From: Parabacteroides faecis
Lineage (GTDB): Bacteria > Bacteroidota > Bacteroidia > Bacteroidales > Tannerellaceae
Length of the DNA stretch: 64,000 nucleotides
Reading direction: 5' to 3'
NCBI RefSeq assembly: GCF_014647375.1
Contig: NZ_BMPB01000017.1
Span: 140,251-204,250 of the forward strand
Position numbers and translations under genes: made by a program. Shown here in pieces: positions 8,199 to 13,284 of the stretch. The notes below the pieces were generated by a model. It worked only from the letters and a program-made list of their open reading frames with translations. It was not told the DNA's origin and searched no databases. Each line of letters starts with the position of its first letter. The first letter of the stretch is position 1.

Positions 8199-8300
8199 AT
8201 GTCGATCAATTCAATAAACAGGCGTCGGGAAGACTTGATAAAGCAGATCAGTCAAATAGAAGACGAAGAATTGTTGATCTCTCTGGAAGATCAGATATGA
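8199..8300 (+). CDS. Small hypothetical protein (33 aa)
   Basis: ATG at 8199 and TGA at 8298-8300 give a charged 33-residue peptide rich in Arg, Glu and Asp (contains RRREDLIK and EDEELLISLED). It is preceded by a good -7 element and followed after 22 bp by the ORF6N start. The composition recalls the N-terminus of small antitoxin-like proteins found beside such genes, but I cannot assign a family. It may be a truncated remnant. Confidence 0.35.
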   Translation: MSINSINRRREDLIKQISQIEDEELLISLEDQI

Positions 8301-8322
8301 ACATCAATAAAACATTGACATT

Positions 8323-8406
8323 ATGGATTTACAGATTATTCAAAGTAAAATATATGAGATCAGAGGACAAAAGATTATGCTTGATAAAGATTTGGCCGTT
8401 ATGTGA
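8323..8406 (+). pseudogene. ORF6N-domain gene, 5' fragment
   Basis: The first 25 codons are the start of a typical ORF6N-domain protein (IIQSKIYEIRGQKIMLDKDLA). After Ala25 (GCC at 8395-8397) the frame runs into inserted DNA and stops at TGA 8404-8406. The missing continuation, beginning [17 protein letters not shown], is found at 11911. ORF6N domains occur in phage-like and anti-repressor proteins and probably bind DNA. The gene is split by the recombinase element. Confidence 0.85.
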
Positions 8407-8419
8407 AGCTTCACATAAC
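8398..8419. repeat. 22-bp perfect palindrome at the left end of the RIT element
   Basis: The arm GTTATGTGAAG is followed directly by its exact reverse complement. The TTATGTGAAG core resembles the TTATGCACAG and TTATGTACAG motifs in the terminal inverted repeat, so this may be a paired recombinase binding site. Confidence 0.8.
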
Positions 8420-8423
8420 CGCA

Positions 8424-8453
8424 ATTATGCACAGTAAGCGATTATGTACAGTA
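8424..8453 (+). repeat. Left terminal inverted repeat of RIT element
   Basis: 30 bp that match the reverse complement of 11877-11906 with one mismatch. It contains ATTATGCACAGTA and ATTATGTACAGTA 17 bp apart, as expected for two adjacent recombinase binding motifs. Confidence 0.9.
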
Positions 8454-8515
8454 AAGTCATCTAGCAGCTTTAAAATAGAGCATAAGAGAATCAATAACTA
8501 AACATAATTTTTTGT

Positions 8516-8555
8516 ATTTTACTGAGAGCAGTGATTTTGCTGTTCTTAGTAAAAT
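8516..8555. promoter_or_regulatory. Stem-loop in the leader of the recombinase operon
   Basis: ATTTTACTGAGAGCAG pairs with the copy ending in AGTAAAAT at 8555 with few mismatches. An outer pair ATAACTAAA (8494-8502) / TTTAGTTAT (8557-8565) extends it up to the likely start codon at 8564. It could limit expression of the first recombinase by read-through from the host gene, or be a recombination site. Confidence 0.5.
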
Positions 8556-8563
8556 ATTTAGTT

Positions 8564-9832
8564 ATGAGACCATTATTTAAATTCAGCATCCTTTCCTTGG
8601 ATGAATTAACCGCCTCAGTTAGTAATTACATGTCAACACATTTTCTTCGGTCAAAAGTCACAATCCGCAATTATTACTGGGTTTGGCGAAAGTTAGATCG
8701 GTATATGTTCGAAAATGACATTGATATTTACACCCCTCTGGTAGGGAAATCCTTTTTAAGTCAGAGGTTTGGATTAAATCAGGATTATCGTAAACTGTCC
8801 ACCTCCAATAAAAATTTTGTCAGATCGATTAAGATCTTATCAGAATACCAATCAACAGGGATTGTAAAACCATCAAAGCAAGAGGTGTCATTTTATGGAG
8901 AAATAGGAACTTTAATGCAATCCTATATTAATGCTTGTCGTTTGAGACGTTTAGTTCCGGATGCAATAGATCGATACGAGAGAACTCTCTATCGCTTTTT
9001 TTGTTTTCTGAATAGAATTAAAGTAGATGAAATCCAGAACATTAAGACTGTTCACATCTTACTGTATTTTAATAACCTTGACGCTCAGGTAAAGTCCCTT
9101 ATACAAAATGCAGCTTCCATATTGAAGTTATTTTTTTCTTACTTGTATGACAACAACTATACACTTACAAATTTATCCCTGGCTGTTCCACGCCATAATA
9201 TCAGGGAGCAACCCAAGCTACCATCATATTACTCAAAAGATGAGATAGAAAGCCTGCTGCAATCTATTGAAAGAAGTAGTGATTTGGGGAAGCGTGACTA
9301 CGCAATAATTTTATTGGCTGCCCGACTAGGATTGAGAGCTTCAGATATTTGCAGTCTGAAGTTTGAAAATATTATATGGGACAAAAGCCTTATGCAATTG
9401 GATCAAAACAAAACAGGGAAACGGATAGAATTACCACTACTCACAGAATTAGGGAATGCAATTATTGATTATTTAAAACTCGCACGTCCGAAATCAAAAG
9501 AAACATATGTTTTCTTAAGAGCAAAAGCTCCTTTTACCCGACTTTATAGTGCCGCCATAACCTCTATTGTCCATAAACACCTTGTTCATGCTGGAATAAA
9601 TATTGAAAACAGAAGACATGGAGCACATGCTTTGAGACATTCATTAGCTGGTGTACTGCTCGAACAAAGGACTACTCTTCCCATCATTTCTGAGGTTCTT
9701 GGTCATGGTAGTACAGAGTCCACGAAGTATTACTTGAGGATAGATTCTACATCCCTTAAACAATGTGCGCTTGAAGTACCTCCTGTTTTACAAAAGTTTT
9801 ACACTCAAAAAGGAGGGATTTTTTATGCGTAA
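8564..9832 (+). CDS. Tyrosine recombinase A of RIT element
   Basis: A 422-residue site-specific recombinase. Seen: an N-terminal SAM-like DNA-binding region and a C-terminal catalytic domain with GLRASDIC (first Arg), HALRHSLAG (His-x-x-Arg) and LGHGSTESTKYYLR (second His and nucleophile Tyr). I chose the ATG at 8564 over a GTG at 8531, which lies inside the leader stem-loop. Its stop overlaps the next gene by 8 bp, so translation is probably coupled. Catalytic residues are intact, so the protein should be active. Confidence 0.9.
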   Translation: MRPLFKFSILSLDELTASVSNYMSTHFLRSKVTIRNYYWVWRKLDRYMFENDIDIYTPLVGKSFLSQRFGLNQDYRKLSTSNKNFVRSIKILSEYQSTGIVKPSKQEVSFYGEIGTLMQSYINACRLRRLVPDAIDRYERTLYRFFCFLNRIKVDEIQNIKTVHILLYFNNLDAQVKSLIQNAASILKLFFSYLYDNNYTLTNLSLAVPRHNIREQPKLPSYYSKDEIESLLQSIERSSDLGKRDYAIILLAARLGLRASDICSLKFENIIWDKSLMQLDQNKTGKRIELPLLTELGNAIIDYLKLARPKSKETYVFLRAKAPFTRLYSAAITSIVHKHLVHAGINIENRRHGAHALRHSLAGVLLEQRTTLPIISEVLGHGSTESTKYYLRIDSTSLKQCALEVPPVLQKFYTQKGGIFYA

Positions 9833-10814
9833 ACATTATAACTTTACAGGGGCTTATGCTTTATACATTGAGCAATTGATTGCTTTGAAACAAAAATTAG
9901 GCTATAAATATACATCCGCACAAGAATTGCTGTTCCGGTTCGACCGGTTTACTATAGAAAGAGCGGAATTATCGCCTGGCATAACAAAAGAACTTTCAGA
10001 CGCATGGTCTGAAAGAATAGGGTTTGAATCAGACAAATACAGGCAACGCAGAATCAGAATATTGGTACAGCTGTCTTCTTTAATGAATGATATTGGAGTA
10101 CATTCATACATCCCTGTCTTTCCGAAAGTTCACGAACGTATTGTCATTCCATACATCTATTCTCAAACAGAGATTGTGGCTATATTCAAAGCTTGCGATG
10201 AAGTTCAAATAAGCCGTAGACTAATGAATTGCTATGTAATTATTTTACCTGCTCTGTTTCGGTTACTCTATAGCACGGGACTCCGCATAAATGAAGCATT
10301 GGCGCTTTTGGATGATGATATAAATTTGGATCAAAATTATTTGATCGTCAGGGATAGTAAAAATACTAAAGAACGTTTAATCCCTATCTCCGAGTCGCTT
10401 TCTTCTGTTTGTAAGGAATATCTACAATATAGGGATATGATGCCACTAAATAGGGATAAAAACTATTTCTTTGTTTCCCTGAATGGGAGCAAATGCAAAA
10501 GTGGAGTTGTGTATGGATGGTTCCGGAGAATCCTTTTGGATGCTGGTATTCCATACAAGGGGAACCACCAAGGACCTCGCATCCATGACTTAAGACATAC
10601 ATTTGCCGTGCATTCTCTTGCTAAAATGGCAGAGGAAGGTACTGACTTGTATTGTGCATTACCTTACTTGTCTATCTACCTTGGTCATCAGTCAATAAGG
10701 GCGACAAACGGATATGTGAGATTGACCGCTGAAATGTATCCAGAGTTGCTTAAGAATGTCAATGTTGTATGTTTGAACGTTTTCCCTAAAACAGAATATC
10801 ATGAATCCAACTGA
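9825..10814 (+). CDS. Tyrosine recombinase B of RIT element
   Basis: A 329-residue tyrosine recombinase, second of three. The start at 9825 is set by a strong AGGAGGG at 9811-9817; this ATG lies within the end of the first recombinase gene. Catalytic motifs are STGLRINEAL, HDLRHTFAVHSL and YLGHQSIRATNGYVRL, with Arg, His, Arg, His and Tyr all present. The end overlaps the third gene by 14 bp. In RIT elements the three proteins are thought to act together on the element ends; that role here is inference from architecture. Confidence 0.9.
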   Translation: MRKHYNFTGAYALYIEQLIALKQKLGYKYTSAQELLFRFDRFTIERAELSPGITKELSDAWSERIGFESDKYRQRRIRILVQLSSLMNDIGVHSYIPVFPKVHERIVIPYIYSQTEIVAIFKACDEVQISRRLMNCYVIILPALFRLLYSTGLRINEALALLDDDINLDQNYLIVRDSKNTKERLIPISESLSSVCKEYLQYRDMMPLNRDKNYFFVSLNGSKCKSGVVYGWFRRILLDAGIPYKGNHQGPRIHDLRHTFAVHSLAKMAEEGTDLYCALPYLSIYLGHQSIRATNGYVRLTAEMYPELLKNVNVVCLNVFPKTEYHESN

Positions 10815-11814
10815 TTTCTCAAAACACTTATCTGGCTTTTTAATCAAATACTTGCCCGGAGAACGCGGTGTAAGCACCAACACTATCAGCTCTTATAAAT
10901 ACACATTTTTATTACTTGTCACCTTTGTTCAAGAGAAGAAGGGTCTCAATATAAAAGTACTTACTATTAAATGTATAACAAAAGAACTTGTTGTGGAATT
11001 TCTTGATTGGCTACAAAAGGAAAGGCACAACGGCAATTCAACTCGAAACGCGCGGCTTGCAGCCATCCATGCTTTTTATCGTTACCTACAGTATCAAGCT
11101 ATAGAGAACCTTTATGAATGCCAAAGAATATTATCTATCAAAAATAAGAAGACTGAGACGAAATTTTTAAATTACTTGACAATAGAGGGTGTTGCATTAA
11201 TTTTAAAGCAACCCGATATATCTACCATGCGTGGCAGACGTGACCTGGCTTTATTGTCATTGATGTATGACACAGGAGCACGAGTACAAGAAATAGCCGA
11301 CTTGATAGCTTCATCCGTCCGCCTCGACAAGCCATATGTGATAAAAATCAAAGGAAAGGGTAACAAGGTGCGGATTGTACCAATGTTGGATGGACAAGTG
11401 GCACATTTACTAAAATATATGATTGAGCATAAACTTACTGATAAGTATGCCAATCAGTATCCTTTATTTTGTAATAAGCATAATGAGAAACTAACGCGTG
11501 GTGGAATCACATACATTCTCTTGAAATATGCAGAAATGGCAAGAAAAGAATCAACATCGCTTATTCCTGATGGTATTGGCTGCCACTCGTTCCGCCATTC
11601 TAAGGCAATGCACTTATTACAAGCGAATGTGCCATTAATTTACATCCGGGACTTTTTAGGACACACTTCTGTCACAACTACAGAGATTTATGCAAGAGCG
11701 GATTCTAAACAGAAACGTGATGCCATTGAAAAAGCCTATGCGGATGTGATGCCAAACGAAACTCCTATGTGGGTCAATAATGACAACTTGTTAGAGTGGC
11801 TAAAGAGCCTATAA
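10801..11814 (+). CDS. Tyrosine recombinase C of RIT element
   Basis: A 337-residue tyrosine recombinase, XerC/D-like in layout. Seen: an N-terminal SAM-like core-binding domain (TRNARLAAIHAFYRYLQ near 80-97) and catalytic motifs DTGARVQEIA, CHSFRHSKAMHLL and FLGHTSVTTTEIYARA, so Arg, His, Arg, His and Tyr are kept. The ATG at 10801 lies within the end of recombinase B. Only about 60 bp separate its stop from the right terminal repeat, leaving no room for cargo. Confidence 0.92.
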   Translation: MNPTDFSKHLSGFLIKYLPGERGVSTNTISSYKYTFLLLVTFVQEKKGLNIKVLTIKCITKELVVEFLDWLQKERHNGNSTRNARLAAIHAFYRYLQYQAIENLYECQRILSIKNKKTETKFLNYLTIEGVALILKQPDISTMRGRRDLALLSLMYDTGARVQEIADLIASSVRLDKPYVIKIKGKGNKVRIVPMLDGQVAHLLKYMIEHKLTDKYANQYPLFCNKHNEKLTRGGITYILLKYAEMARKESTSLIPDGIGCHSFRHSKAMHLLQANVPLIYIRDFLGHTSVTTTEIYARADSKQKRDAIEKAYADVMPNETPMWVNNDNLLEWLKSL

Positions 11815-11876
11815 AGAAAAATGATTATGTACAGAGATATGAGAAAATGTCCTGATGGAAGACACTTGCAGAATTG

Positions 11877-11906
11877 TACTGTACATAATCGTTTACTGTG
11901 CATAAT
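11877..11906 (-). repeat. Right terminal inverted repeat of RIT element
   Basis: Reverse complement of 8424-8453 with one mismatch. It abuts the ORF6N 3' fragment directly, and its last bases supply the A and T of an ATG at 11905. A further GATTATGTACAG at 11823-11834 is in inverted orientation to CTGTACATAATC at 11879-11890. Confidence 0.9.
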
Positions 11907-12420
11907 GGCGGAACTTTACCAAGTAGAAGTTCGAATATTGAATCAGGCTGTAAAAAGAAATATAAAACGATTCCCTAGTGATTTTATGTTTCAATTGACT
12001 TCTGATGAATGGGCAATCTTGAAATCACAGTTTGTGACTTCAAGTTGGGGAGGTATTCGTAAGTTACCTAATGCTTTTACTGAGCAGGGTTTAGCAATGT
12101 TGTCTGGTGTTTTGAGTAGCGATGTTGCCATAAATGTGAATATCTCAATAATGAGGGCCTTCGTTGCAATACGAAATGGTATCCGTAATAATCAGGAACT
12201 TGAAGATCTAAAAAATCGTATCAAAGCATTGGAAGATGGAAGTGAAGATACGATAGCTGCAATAAATGACCTTAGCGAGGATACCCGAAAAGAATTAGAT
12301 GATATTTATTTAGCTTTATCGCAATTAGCTGGCAAACAGAAACAAATTGATAAACAAGTAGAACGTAAACCTATTGGTTTTATTCATTATCAAGATAAAA
12401 GGCAGGTAGAGAAAGATTAA
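11905..12420 (+). pseudogene. ORF6N-domain gene, 3' fragment (possibly re-started)
   Basis: From 11908 the sequence continues the ORF6N protein broken at 8397: [18 protein letters not shown], then [22 protein letters not shown], and a coiled C-terminal part ending at the TAA of 12418-12420, about 171 codons. An in-frame ATG at 11905 is created by the element end, and another frame-linked ATG lies upstream at 11821 within element DNA, so a protein lacking only the first 25 residues may still be made. With the element removed the gene would encode about 196 residues. ORF6N proteins are probable DNA-binding or anti-repressor proteins. Confidence 0.8.
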
Positions 12421-12438: not shown

Positions 12439-13284
12439 TTACGGTTGAGTCAACTTCTGACATTCAAAGCAATAATAGATACTGCCTCCCATATAACTCT
12501 CTTTGCGTATATCTTCTCCGCAAACCGGGCAAGGCTTGCCGGTGGTATCTTTGGATAGTATGGGGATATAGCGGCCTTTATTTCCGAGCAGGTCTGTTTC
12601 CGAATTACGTCCGCCTGCCTGATAGATTTCCTGAAGTGTCGCTTTAGTGCAATGAAACAACGTATCTTTCTGTTTTTCAGATAATATGTTGATACGAGTT
12701 TTAGGATGGATACGTGCTTTGAACAGGATGTCCTGTAAAACTCCGTTTCCTAATCCCGGTATCGTTTGCTCGGTCGCAAGGAAAGCCTTTGCCGTTTTCT
12801 TTTGTTTCTCCTCACTGTTTATCAGGCTCAGAAAATAGGTTTTGTCGAAAGCTTCCGAAAGCACCTGTGGTTTGGTACGTGCCCCTTCACGATAGGAGCT
12901 GAAGCTGCAATCGAAAGCACCGTCAGGAAAACACATGACTGCCCCGTACATCCGGACGGATCCCATGATACAACTCTCGTCTTCGAAAGCAATGAGCAAC
13001 TGGTGTTTTTCCGGTATCTTTTCACCGGGAGCGTAGTACCGGATATTCATCCCGTCTCCGAATAATAAACGCACATCTTCTATATCTATCTCGATCAGAC
13101 CACCATAGGCATGAGCTTCCCCAATTATCTTACCGGTAAGCATCCCCGAATAATTAGCCGGATCTCCATAGAACCATGCAAACTTATGAGGTGTATATCC
13201 TGCGCTGACAAATGTAATTCTTTTCCCTTTAATCGTTTGATTCATCTGCTCGGAGATGTACAAGGCTTCCGGTGCTTCTATCAT
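12439..13284 (-). CDS. Fpg/Nei-like DNA glycosylase family protein lacking catalytic Pro2
   Basis: The 281-residue protein has the layout of formamidopyrimidine-DNA glycosylase/endonuclease VIII: N-terminal beta-sandwich, helix-two-turn-helix (IPGLGNGVLQDILFKARIHP near 170-190) and a C-terminal four-Cys zinc finger (CPVCGED ... YYCFECQ). Normal Fpg starts MPELPEV, with the proline after Met acting as the nucleophile. This protein starts MIEAPEAL, so Pro2 is Ile while Glu3 and the PE at 5-6 remain. It may have altered or no glycosylase activity but still bind damaged DNA. It stands alone between the ORF6N remnant and the divergent TetR operon. Confidence 0.88.
   Translation of the reverse strand: MIEAPEALYISEQMNQTIKGKRITFVSAGYTPHKFAWFYGDPANYSGMLTGKIIGEAHAYGGLIEIDIEDVRLLFGDGMNIRYYAPGEKIPEKHQLLIAFEDESCIMGSVRMYGAVMCFPDGAFDCSFSSYREGARTKPQVLSEAFDKTYFLSLINSEEKQKKTAKAFLATEQTIPGLGNGVLQDILFKARIHPKTRINILSEKQKDTLFHCTKATLQEIYQAGGRNSETDLLGNKGRYIPILSKDTTGKPCPVCGEDIRKESYMGGSIYYCFECQKLTQP

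What the first reader, a model, noticed from the sequence alone, without database searches (positions are those of the whole stretch)
8323..12420. RIT element splits an ORF6N gene, with junctions that would restore the frame on excision
Three overlapping, catalytically intact tyrosine recombinases fill the space between 30-bp inverted repeats (8424-8453 and 11877-11906, one mismatch). The flanks are the two halves of one ORF6N protein: ...DKDLA up to 8397 and AELYQVEV... from 11908. TGGC is present at both junctions, and a crossover there gives GAT TTG GCG GAA CTT, exactly in frame. The host gene halves show no decay, so the insertion looks recent or reversible. RIT layout is established knowledge; insertion into an anti-repressor-like gene with a clean junction gives a natural experiment on target choice.
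Basis: partly seen in the sequence, partly recalled or inferred. Interest (0 to 1): 0.75.

Follow-up and report, generated by a model that had tools for sequence, protein, structure and literature searches.

The report
RIT transposon recording its previous homes
A small bacterial jumping element made of three recombinase genes has landed in an ORF6N gene, and comparison with related elements suggests that its ends carry two six-letter "stamps" copied from earlier landing sites, which gives a testable account of how this little-studied class moves.

Summary
In detail: a complete RIT (recombinase-in-trio) element splits an ORF6N gene. The junction is not quite as described. The insert is 8399-11911 (3513 bp). 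Its left end carries an extra 20-bp perfect palindrome P (8399-8418) and a 6-bp spacer (8419-8424) outside the inverted repeat (IR); the right end does not.

The asymmetry is general. Of 105 RIT loci tested, 62 had a scorable IR; in 36 of these P lies at exactly one end, 6 bp from the IR arm. I infer a circle whose joint reads IR-key-P-key-IR: two dif-like cores sharing P. Insertion through either core leaves the target's own 6-mer beside P. On leaving, the circle takes that 6-mer as a new key.

In all 7 multi-copy sets examined, the key beside P in one copy equals the target 6-mer of another. This holds in 12 of 24 ordered pairs with P at opposite ends, 2 of 10 at the same end, and 0 of 308 cross-set pairs.

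The window's two keys and target 6-mer all fit codons of one ORF6N motif (L-A-E), so its last homes were probably ORF6N genes. The predicted empty site is GAT TTG GCC GAA. Reversibility is not shown; no close relative was found.

The parts
8323..8398 (+). 5' part of the interrupted ORF6N gene (target half next to P)
   Evidence: PF10543 columns 1-19; abuts the 3' half in 24 of 24 full-length homologue hits
8393..8398 (+). target's own 6-mer t, TGGCCG (S2)
8399..8418 (.). 20-bp perfect palindrome P, TTATGTGAAGCTTCACATAA
   Evidence: the same position relative to the IR at one end of 36 of 62 scorable loci
8419..8424 (+). left key S1, CCGCAA (reads TTGCGG, its reverse complement, when compared with the target 6-mer)
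8425..8453 (+). left inverted repeat: arms TTATGCACAG (8425-8434) and TTATGTACAG (8442-8451)
8498..8507 (-). inner inverted arm-like site CTAAACATAA
   Evidence: regex only
8564..9832 (+). ritA (first ATG; a GTG start at 8531 is also open)
9825..10814 (+). ritB
10801..11814 (+). ritC
11825..11834 (+). inner arm-like site TTATGTACAG near the right end
   Evidence: regex only
11877..11905 (-). right inverted repeat (arms 11879-11888 and 11896-11905)
11906..11911 (+). right key S3, TGGCGG (reads CCGCCA inward)
11912..12420 (+). 3' part of the ORF6N gene
   Evidence: PF10543 columns 17-86

Best explanation
This is a RIT transposon that moves as a circle. SHOWN by sequence comparison: each RIT end in this set is built of Xer/dif-like 10-bp arms (TTATGnnnAG and variants) and 6-bp spacers, and in most elements with both ends readable one end carries an extra palindrome P of about 20 bp set off by 6-bp spacers. 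INFERRED: the circle joint is IRR-X-P-Y-IRL, two core sites sharing P. One core (X or Y) exchanges strands with a target T-t-T', whose 6-mer t resembles the key. The product is T-t-P-Y-IRL...IRR-X-T'. The target's t stays beside P and the used key stays on the other IR, as reported for SE and Tn554 elements. On leaving, the new circle takes t in place of the used key. The next insertion goes through the other core, so the element flips end for end relative to P. The two IR-adjacent 6-mers are therefore copies of earlier target sequences.

In the window the element entered an ORF6N gene at D-L-A^E through the right core. Its keys read TGGCGG and TTGCGG, both codings of L-A-E, as does the target 6-mer TGGCCG. 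The lineage has therefore probably hopped between ORF6N genes. The roles of RitA, RitB and RitC on the arm types are not assigned.
For: Anatomy: P at exactly one end in 36 of 62 scorable loci, of 105 tested. In all 34 loci where a pattern found P (30 at one end, 4 at both) the P-to-arm distance was 6, with 3-10 allowed. By eye also in 9 of 14 plasmid loci with a RitC match from Proteobacteria, Ruminococcus and Bacteroides.

Spacers: S3 vs rc(S2) match at 4.94 of 6 positions, shuffled mean 1.78, maximum 2.69 of 2000; S1 vs S3 match at 4.69 (36 loci, some related).

Natural experiment: an element identical over 3638 bp in B. ndongoniae and B. ilei sits in opposite orientation in homologous genes (target flank 81% alike over 156 nt, inverted). 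IR-adjacent 6-mers are unchanged, P is on the same target side, and the imperfect P has the same strand in the implied circle.

Key inheritance: S1 of one copy equals t of another with P at the opposite end in 7 of 7 sets: 12 of 24 ordered pairs, 2 of 10 same-end pairs, 0 of 308 cross-set pairs. The rule was noted from Salegentibacter and the Bacteroides pair; the other five sets were read later, though one NORP20 copy (L119) had been seen before.

Frame: joining at the predicted 6-mer gives the longest open frame in 26 of 31 non-viral loci, binomial p about 1e-8.

Codon phase: t/S1 mismatches lie at third codon positions in 20 of 48 sites vs 17 of 96 elsewhere, Fisher p 0.004.

Window: all three 6-mers occur among the 24 ORF6N hits (L045; L110, L113, L114; L112; read from the contexts printed).
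Against: No circle, excision or transposition was observed. The best RitA relatives among the hits kept are about 46-47% identical over most of the protein (short segments to 53%), so the window's own history rests on analogy plus three 6-mers. The right key must resemble t anyway; only the left key is independent evidence for an earlier ORF6N home.

NORP20 copy L269 has the predicted S1 but not the predicted S3. Salegentibacter c4 has no P at either end, and the solo P that a two-target model would leave is absent: only 3 exact P copies, those of c1-c3. Four loci have P at both ends and 22 of 62 showed none; 13 of these 22 lie close to a contig end, 9 do not.

The two same-end S1 matches are both in Pedobacter, where only two 6-mers occur. 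Flip vs same alone is not significant (Fisher p 0.14). Pairs within a set are not independent, and the S3 of L302 and L298 was assigned from a separate contig end.

Of 17 exact P-pattern places in 393 genomes, 10 have no RIT arm beside them; only one is a confirmed footprint and most of the rest are unexplained.

The window itself fails the frame criterion, because its 5' half is only about 75 nt long.
Confidence: 0.72

Rival explanations
1. Ordinary cut-and-paste: the element is IR-to-IR, P is an unrelated target feature, and excision at TGGC restores the gene exactly.
For: In-frame join; TGGC at both junctions.
Against: P is absent from ORF6N homologues (24 of 24 full-length hits abut), yet is found at a fixed 6-bp distance in unrelated targets. 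An imperfect P travels with the identical element in two species.
Confidence: 0.08
2. P and keys are real, but spacers agree only because recombinases demand a consensus at each target family; there is no memory of earlier sites.
For: Positions 5 and 6 of the spacer agree in 94-97% of the 36 loci; keys could drift under selection.
Against: Exact 6-mer identity between S1 and another copy's t in the same set (12 of 24 flipped pairs; 0 of 308 cross-set pairs), including radC elements, where t recurs as a key of another copy in 4 of 6 within-genome and 0 of 36 cross-genome comparisons.
Confidence: 0.15
3. P-bearing asymmetry arises from copy-out or strand-biased replication like SE elements, with no empty site and no true excision; the keys still record donors. 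This is compatible with the key rule and differs only in the excision step.
For: SE rules of 6-bp fingerprint and footprint (PMC10214605, passages) match the t and key placement seen here; several near-identical copies coexist in one genome.
Against: Not excluded. The radC solo-P footprint (L243) implies loss of at least one element, though perhaps by another route.
Confidence: 0.45

Closest known systems
RIT (recombinase in trio) elements
   Same: Three overlapping tyrosine recombinases in one orientation, about 3.5 kb, terminal inverted repeats of about 30 bp, insertions inside mobile-element genes; PMC3414803 (passages) mentions a 28-29-bp inverted repeat and an overlapping palindromic sequence.
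   Different: The passages that I could read do not resolve the palindrome as a one-sided shared core, nor the 6-bp keys; Table 1 of PMC10214605 (passage) lists RIT target specificity, empty site and movement as not tested.
SE (strand-biased circularizing integrative elements) and Tn554
   Same: 6-bp spacer; the target 6-mer stays at one end and the donor 6-mer is placed at the other end (PMC10214605, passages).
   Different: Their gene sets differ (IntA/Tfp/IntB/Srap; TnpA/B/C) and the SE circle joint is described with one 6-bp spacer, not two around a shared palindrome.
Tn916-type coupling sequences
   Same: Short flanking sequence carried in the circle joint (recalled, no call).
   Different: There both flanks enter the joint (recalled; also said of ICEs in a passage of PMC10214605); here one directed 6-mer per hop and two storage slots are inferred.
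Xer/dif sites
   Same: Arms read TTATG- and flank a 6-bp centre (dif letters recalled).
   Different: Multiple arms per end and a mobile function.

Membership tests
RIT elements | three adjacent, overlapping tyrosine recombinase genes in one orientation | tested here: met
RIT elements | RitA/RitB/RitC subgroup identity | tested here: inconclusive
   RitA and RitC find trio-organised relatives; no subgroup-specific profile was available. The second CB domain of RitA and the extra helix of RitC (PMC8138268, passage) were not checked.
RIT elements | about 3.5 kb with terminal inverted repeats | tested here: met
   3493 bp between outer IR ends
RIT elements | mobility | not testable with these tools
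   no circle or transposition assay; a split target gene here and identical copies of other RITs elsewhere are indirect
SE elements | IntA, Tfp, IntB, Srap gene set | tested here: not met
   only three long ORFs on the element strand between the repeats, all recombinases
SE elements | 6-bp spacer with directional placement of target and donor 6-mers | tested here: inconclusive
   6-bp spacers met; direction inferred from copies in relatives, not from this element. Works like, not a member.

The most novel reading that the evidence does not exclude
RIT elements carry a two-slot record of their last two landing sites. The circle holds two different 6-bp keys around a shared palindromic core; each hop uses one key, overwrites it with the 6 bp of the site just left, and flips the element so that the other key is used next. 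Target-family loyalty (ORF6N, radC, IS66, istB) would then be inherited through the keys, and transposition genealogies could be read directly from genomes.
Probability: 0.6. Interest if true: 0.85.

Novelty: new member of a known kind. Interest (0 to 1): 0.7.

Why it matters
How three recombinases cooperate on a RIT, what they recognise and whether they leave an empty site are described as open or untested in the passages I read (PMC3414803, PMC10214605). The anatomy found here gives exact, sequence-level predictions for the circle joint, for each insertion and for footprints. It would also make transposition history readable from 6-mers, and it suggests a simple way for an element to stay loyal to one gene family.

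Tried and rejected
Close relative of the window element: none found. 14 of 148 relatives matched, one of them the own genome; the other 13 gave short 66-91% matches. RitA hits at E <= 1e-40: 11 of 393 order genomes, own included, best foreign 46%. DNA searches of plasmids and phages gave ORF6N pieces and one short 70% hit in ritC.

Empty site at this locus in sister species: not testable there. G022, G019 and G004 carry a two-gene toxin-antitoxin-like pair (named by eye) in that place and G024 only about 105 bp.

Homologue codons to choose GCC or GCG: undecided.

Two-target model (one circle joining two targets, leaving a solo P between two 3' halves and a P-less RIT): attractive for L244, L249, L267 and Salegentibacter c4. 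The predicted solo P for c4 was absent, and the transposase-like halves of L249 (both), L267 (both) and L244 (one) gave no Pfam match. Not adopted.

Homologous recombination between copies for P-both or P-none elements: possible, untested; some of these are metagenome assemblies.

Plasmid loci: L221 was not a full trio and was left out; L223 (trio not verified), L292, L296, L276 and L224 showed no P. Of the nine counted as having P, L222 and L295 were read by eye only.

Literature: the searches listed no paper in whose title, abstract start or inspected passages I saw a one-sided palindrome or key inheritance in RITs. Ricker 2013, the main RIT paper, was not opened (a title search failed) and Nielsen 2017 is not held, so priority cannot be excluded. 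Papers seen as passages only: PMC3414803, PMC10214605, PMC8138268, PMC5385486.

Rows dropped: 8 of the 25 viral loci and several partial or duplicate stretches were not put into the end table. Viral loci L205, L207, L210 and L215 and short-flanked L164 were left out of the frame test. Six of the 36 one-P elements (L157, L183, L185, L207, L210, L058) were added or by eye with the 6-bp offset imposed. Of 15 genomes searched for exact P, 4 had it; only the two with three copies entered the key test.
Full report
WHAT IS THERE. Three overlapping tyrosine recombinase ORFs, each with PF00589, lie between inverted repeats 8419-8453 and 11877-11911 (94% complementary over 35 nt). They split an ORF6N gene into profile columns 1-19 and 17-86 (the 27-aa left piece is below Pfam's gathering score). 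In 24 of 24 full-length ORF6N hits in 21 loci the halves abut on one shared Ala codon. Five of the 21 loci are paralogues in the own genome and four are viral contigs.

WHAT WAS MISSED. Outside the left IR there are 26 more bases: a perfect 20-bp palindrome P (8399-8418) and CCGCAA (8419-8424). Outside the right IR there is only a 6-mer, TGGCGG (11906-11911). The 5' gene half ends in TGGCCG (8393-8398). The inserted DNA relative to the target is therefore 8399-11911, 3513 bp, a multiple of three.

GENERALITY. RIT loci came from relatives, genome contigs (the best 80 of 590 confirmed) and viral contigs (25 loci, 17 used). Of 105 loci tested, 62 had a scorable IR; of these 36 have P at exactly one end, 4 at both and 22 at neither. 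13 of those 22 lie close to a contig end and 9 do not. In all 34 loci where a pattern search found P (30 at one end, 4 at both), the distance to the next arm was 6 bp, although 3-10 was allowed. Six more one-P loci were added or by eye. Of 14 plasmid loci with a RitC match, 9 show the same layout by eye (7 Proteobacteria, 1 Ruminococcus, 1 Bacteroides) and 5 show no P. P was at the left in 14 and at the right in 22 of 36.

SPACERS. Call S2 the 6-mer between target and P (t is its reverse complement), S1 the one between P and the IR, and S3 the one at the other IR. S3 and t agree at 4.94 of 6 positions (shuffled 1.78, maximum 2.69 in 2000). S1 and S3 agree at 4.69. 17 of 36 have S3 = t and 16 of 36 have S3 = S1; 12 of 36 have all three equal. 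Some of the 36 are related elements, so they are not fully independent. Mismatches between t and S1 favour third codon positions of the interrupted gene (20 of 48 vs 17 of 96; p 0.004). For t and S3 the figures are 15 of 48 vs 15 of 96; p 0.049 (24 loci with a clear frame, one of which, L124, is probably in the wrong frame). Joining at the predicted 6-mer gives the longest open frame in 26 of 31 non-viral loci, with one tie and four worse. The window is one of the four, because its 5' half is short.

POLARITY. Where the target could be named by motif (by script), P lies on the same side of the target within each family: radC 4 loci (P at the left end in 2, right in 2), istB Walker motif 3 (left 1, right 2), lysozyme-like 2 (left 1, right 1), IS66 4 (all right). 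A left-end IS66 case on the same target side was read by eye (L238), and more radC ends. A further istB locus, L050, is inserted at another place in that gene. Target names rest on short motifs, except RadC and ORF6N, which were confirmed by Pfam for L243 and the Pedobacter ends. In ORF6N targets (window, and three Pedobacter ends) P is on the 5' half.

NATURAL EXPERIMENTS. L183 (B. ndongoniae) and L185 (B. ilei) carry an element identical over 3638 bp, in opposite orientation in homologous genes. The IR-adjacent 6-mers are the same in both, only t differs, and the imperfect P has the same strand in the implied circle. In Salegentibacter oa5 five matches to the ritA end exist. Three copies have P and read as a chain c3 to c1 to c2, in which each copy's S1 is the previous copy's t and P changes ends. 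The rule was noted. Two further genomes with three exact P each (of 15 searched) and three chosen multi-copy genomes were read after that, and each contains an exact match at the predicted end; one NORP20 copy had been seen before.

Over seven sets (19 copies) S1 = another copy's t in 12 of 24 ordered pairs with P at opposite ends, 2 of 10 with P at the same end, and 0 of 308 cross-set pairs. Exceptions: NORP20 L269 has the wrong S3. c4 has no P and no reciprocal solo P. The right end of c5 was not found.

FOOTPRINTS. The degenerate P pattern occurs at 17 places in 14 of 393 order genomes; its reversed control occurs at none. Seven of the 17 lie 6 bp from a RIT arm and ten do not (by eye). Of the ten, L243 is a radC gene in which P plus 6 bp sits between two halves that abut at profile column 70, with no RIT arm beside it; the genome has a partial RitA-like hit elsewhere. 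This is what exchange at the inner core would leave, and it shifts the frame. L239 looks similar in a transposase-like gene, by eye. The other eight are junctions that I cannot explain.

WINDOW HISTORY. Compared in the target's reading direction, the left key reads TTGCGG, the right key TGGCGG and the target 6-mer TGGCCG. All fit the pattern T-N-GCN-G of L-A-E in the ORF6N motif DLAE, and all three occur among the 24 hits (L112; L110, L113, L114; L045). An unrelated 6-mer fits by chance about once in 256 (own arithmetic); the right key is expected to resemble t in any case, so the left key carries the argument. The lineage therefore probably came from ORF6N genes. A Pedobacter RIT also sits in ORF6N genes, at another motif.

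MECHANISM AND LIMITS. The placement of target and donor 6-mers matches what is reported for SE elements (PMC10214605, passages). The double core sharing a palindrome is the added feature. No biochemical step was seen; excision, circle and flip are inferences. Ricker 2013 was not read, so parts of the end anatomy may already be described there.

Noticed in passing
window 8200-8302 and 12439-13284: In sister genomes G022, G019 and G004 the same neighbours flank a RelB/RelE-like gene pair (named by eye) instead of the ORF6N gene; the window keeps only the 5' end of the antitoxin-like gene, so the ORF6N gene seems to have replaced it.
   Followed up: partly
window 11821-12420: An ORF starting just after ritC runs through the right IR in frame into the ORF6N 3' half (29 + 170 aa), so a fusion could be expressed.
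   Followed up: no
L250 (Salegentibacter oa5): A RIT of about 8.4 kb carries an IS110-like gene (by eye) in ritB and a second set of three recombinase-like genes as cargo; several copies share these ends.
   Followed up: partly
L153 6608-10062: Lentibacillus: RIT-type ends lie inside what reads by eye as another RIT's ritB, just after a VHD motif, a nested insertion.
   Followed up: no
L223, L116, L118, L165, L187, L191: RIT flanked on both sides by inverted copies of related sequence, apparently the same target half; cause unresolved.
   Followed up: partly
L130, L135, L146, L149, L154, L156, L161: Stand-alone contigs of 3485-3499 bp look like collapsed RIT repeats; for L135, L149 and L154 further copies were found.
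   Followed up: partly
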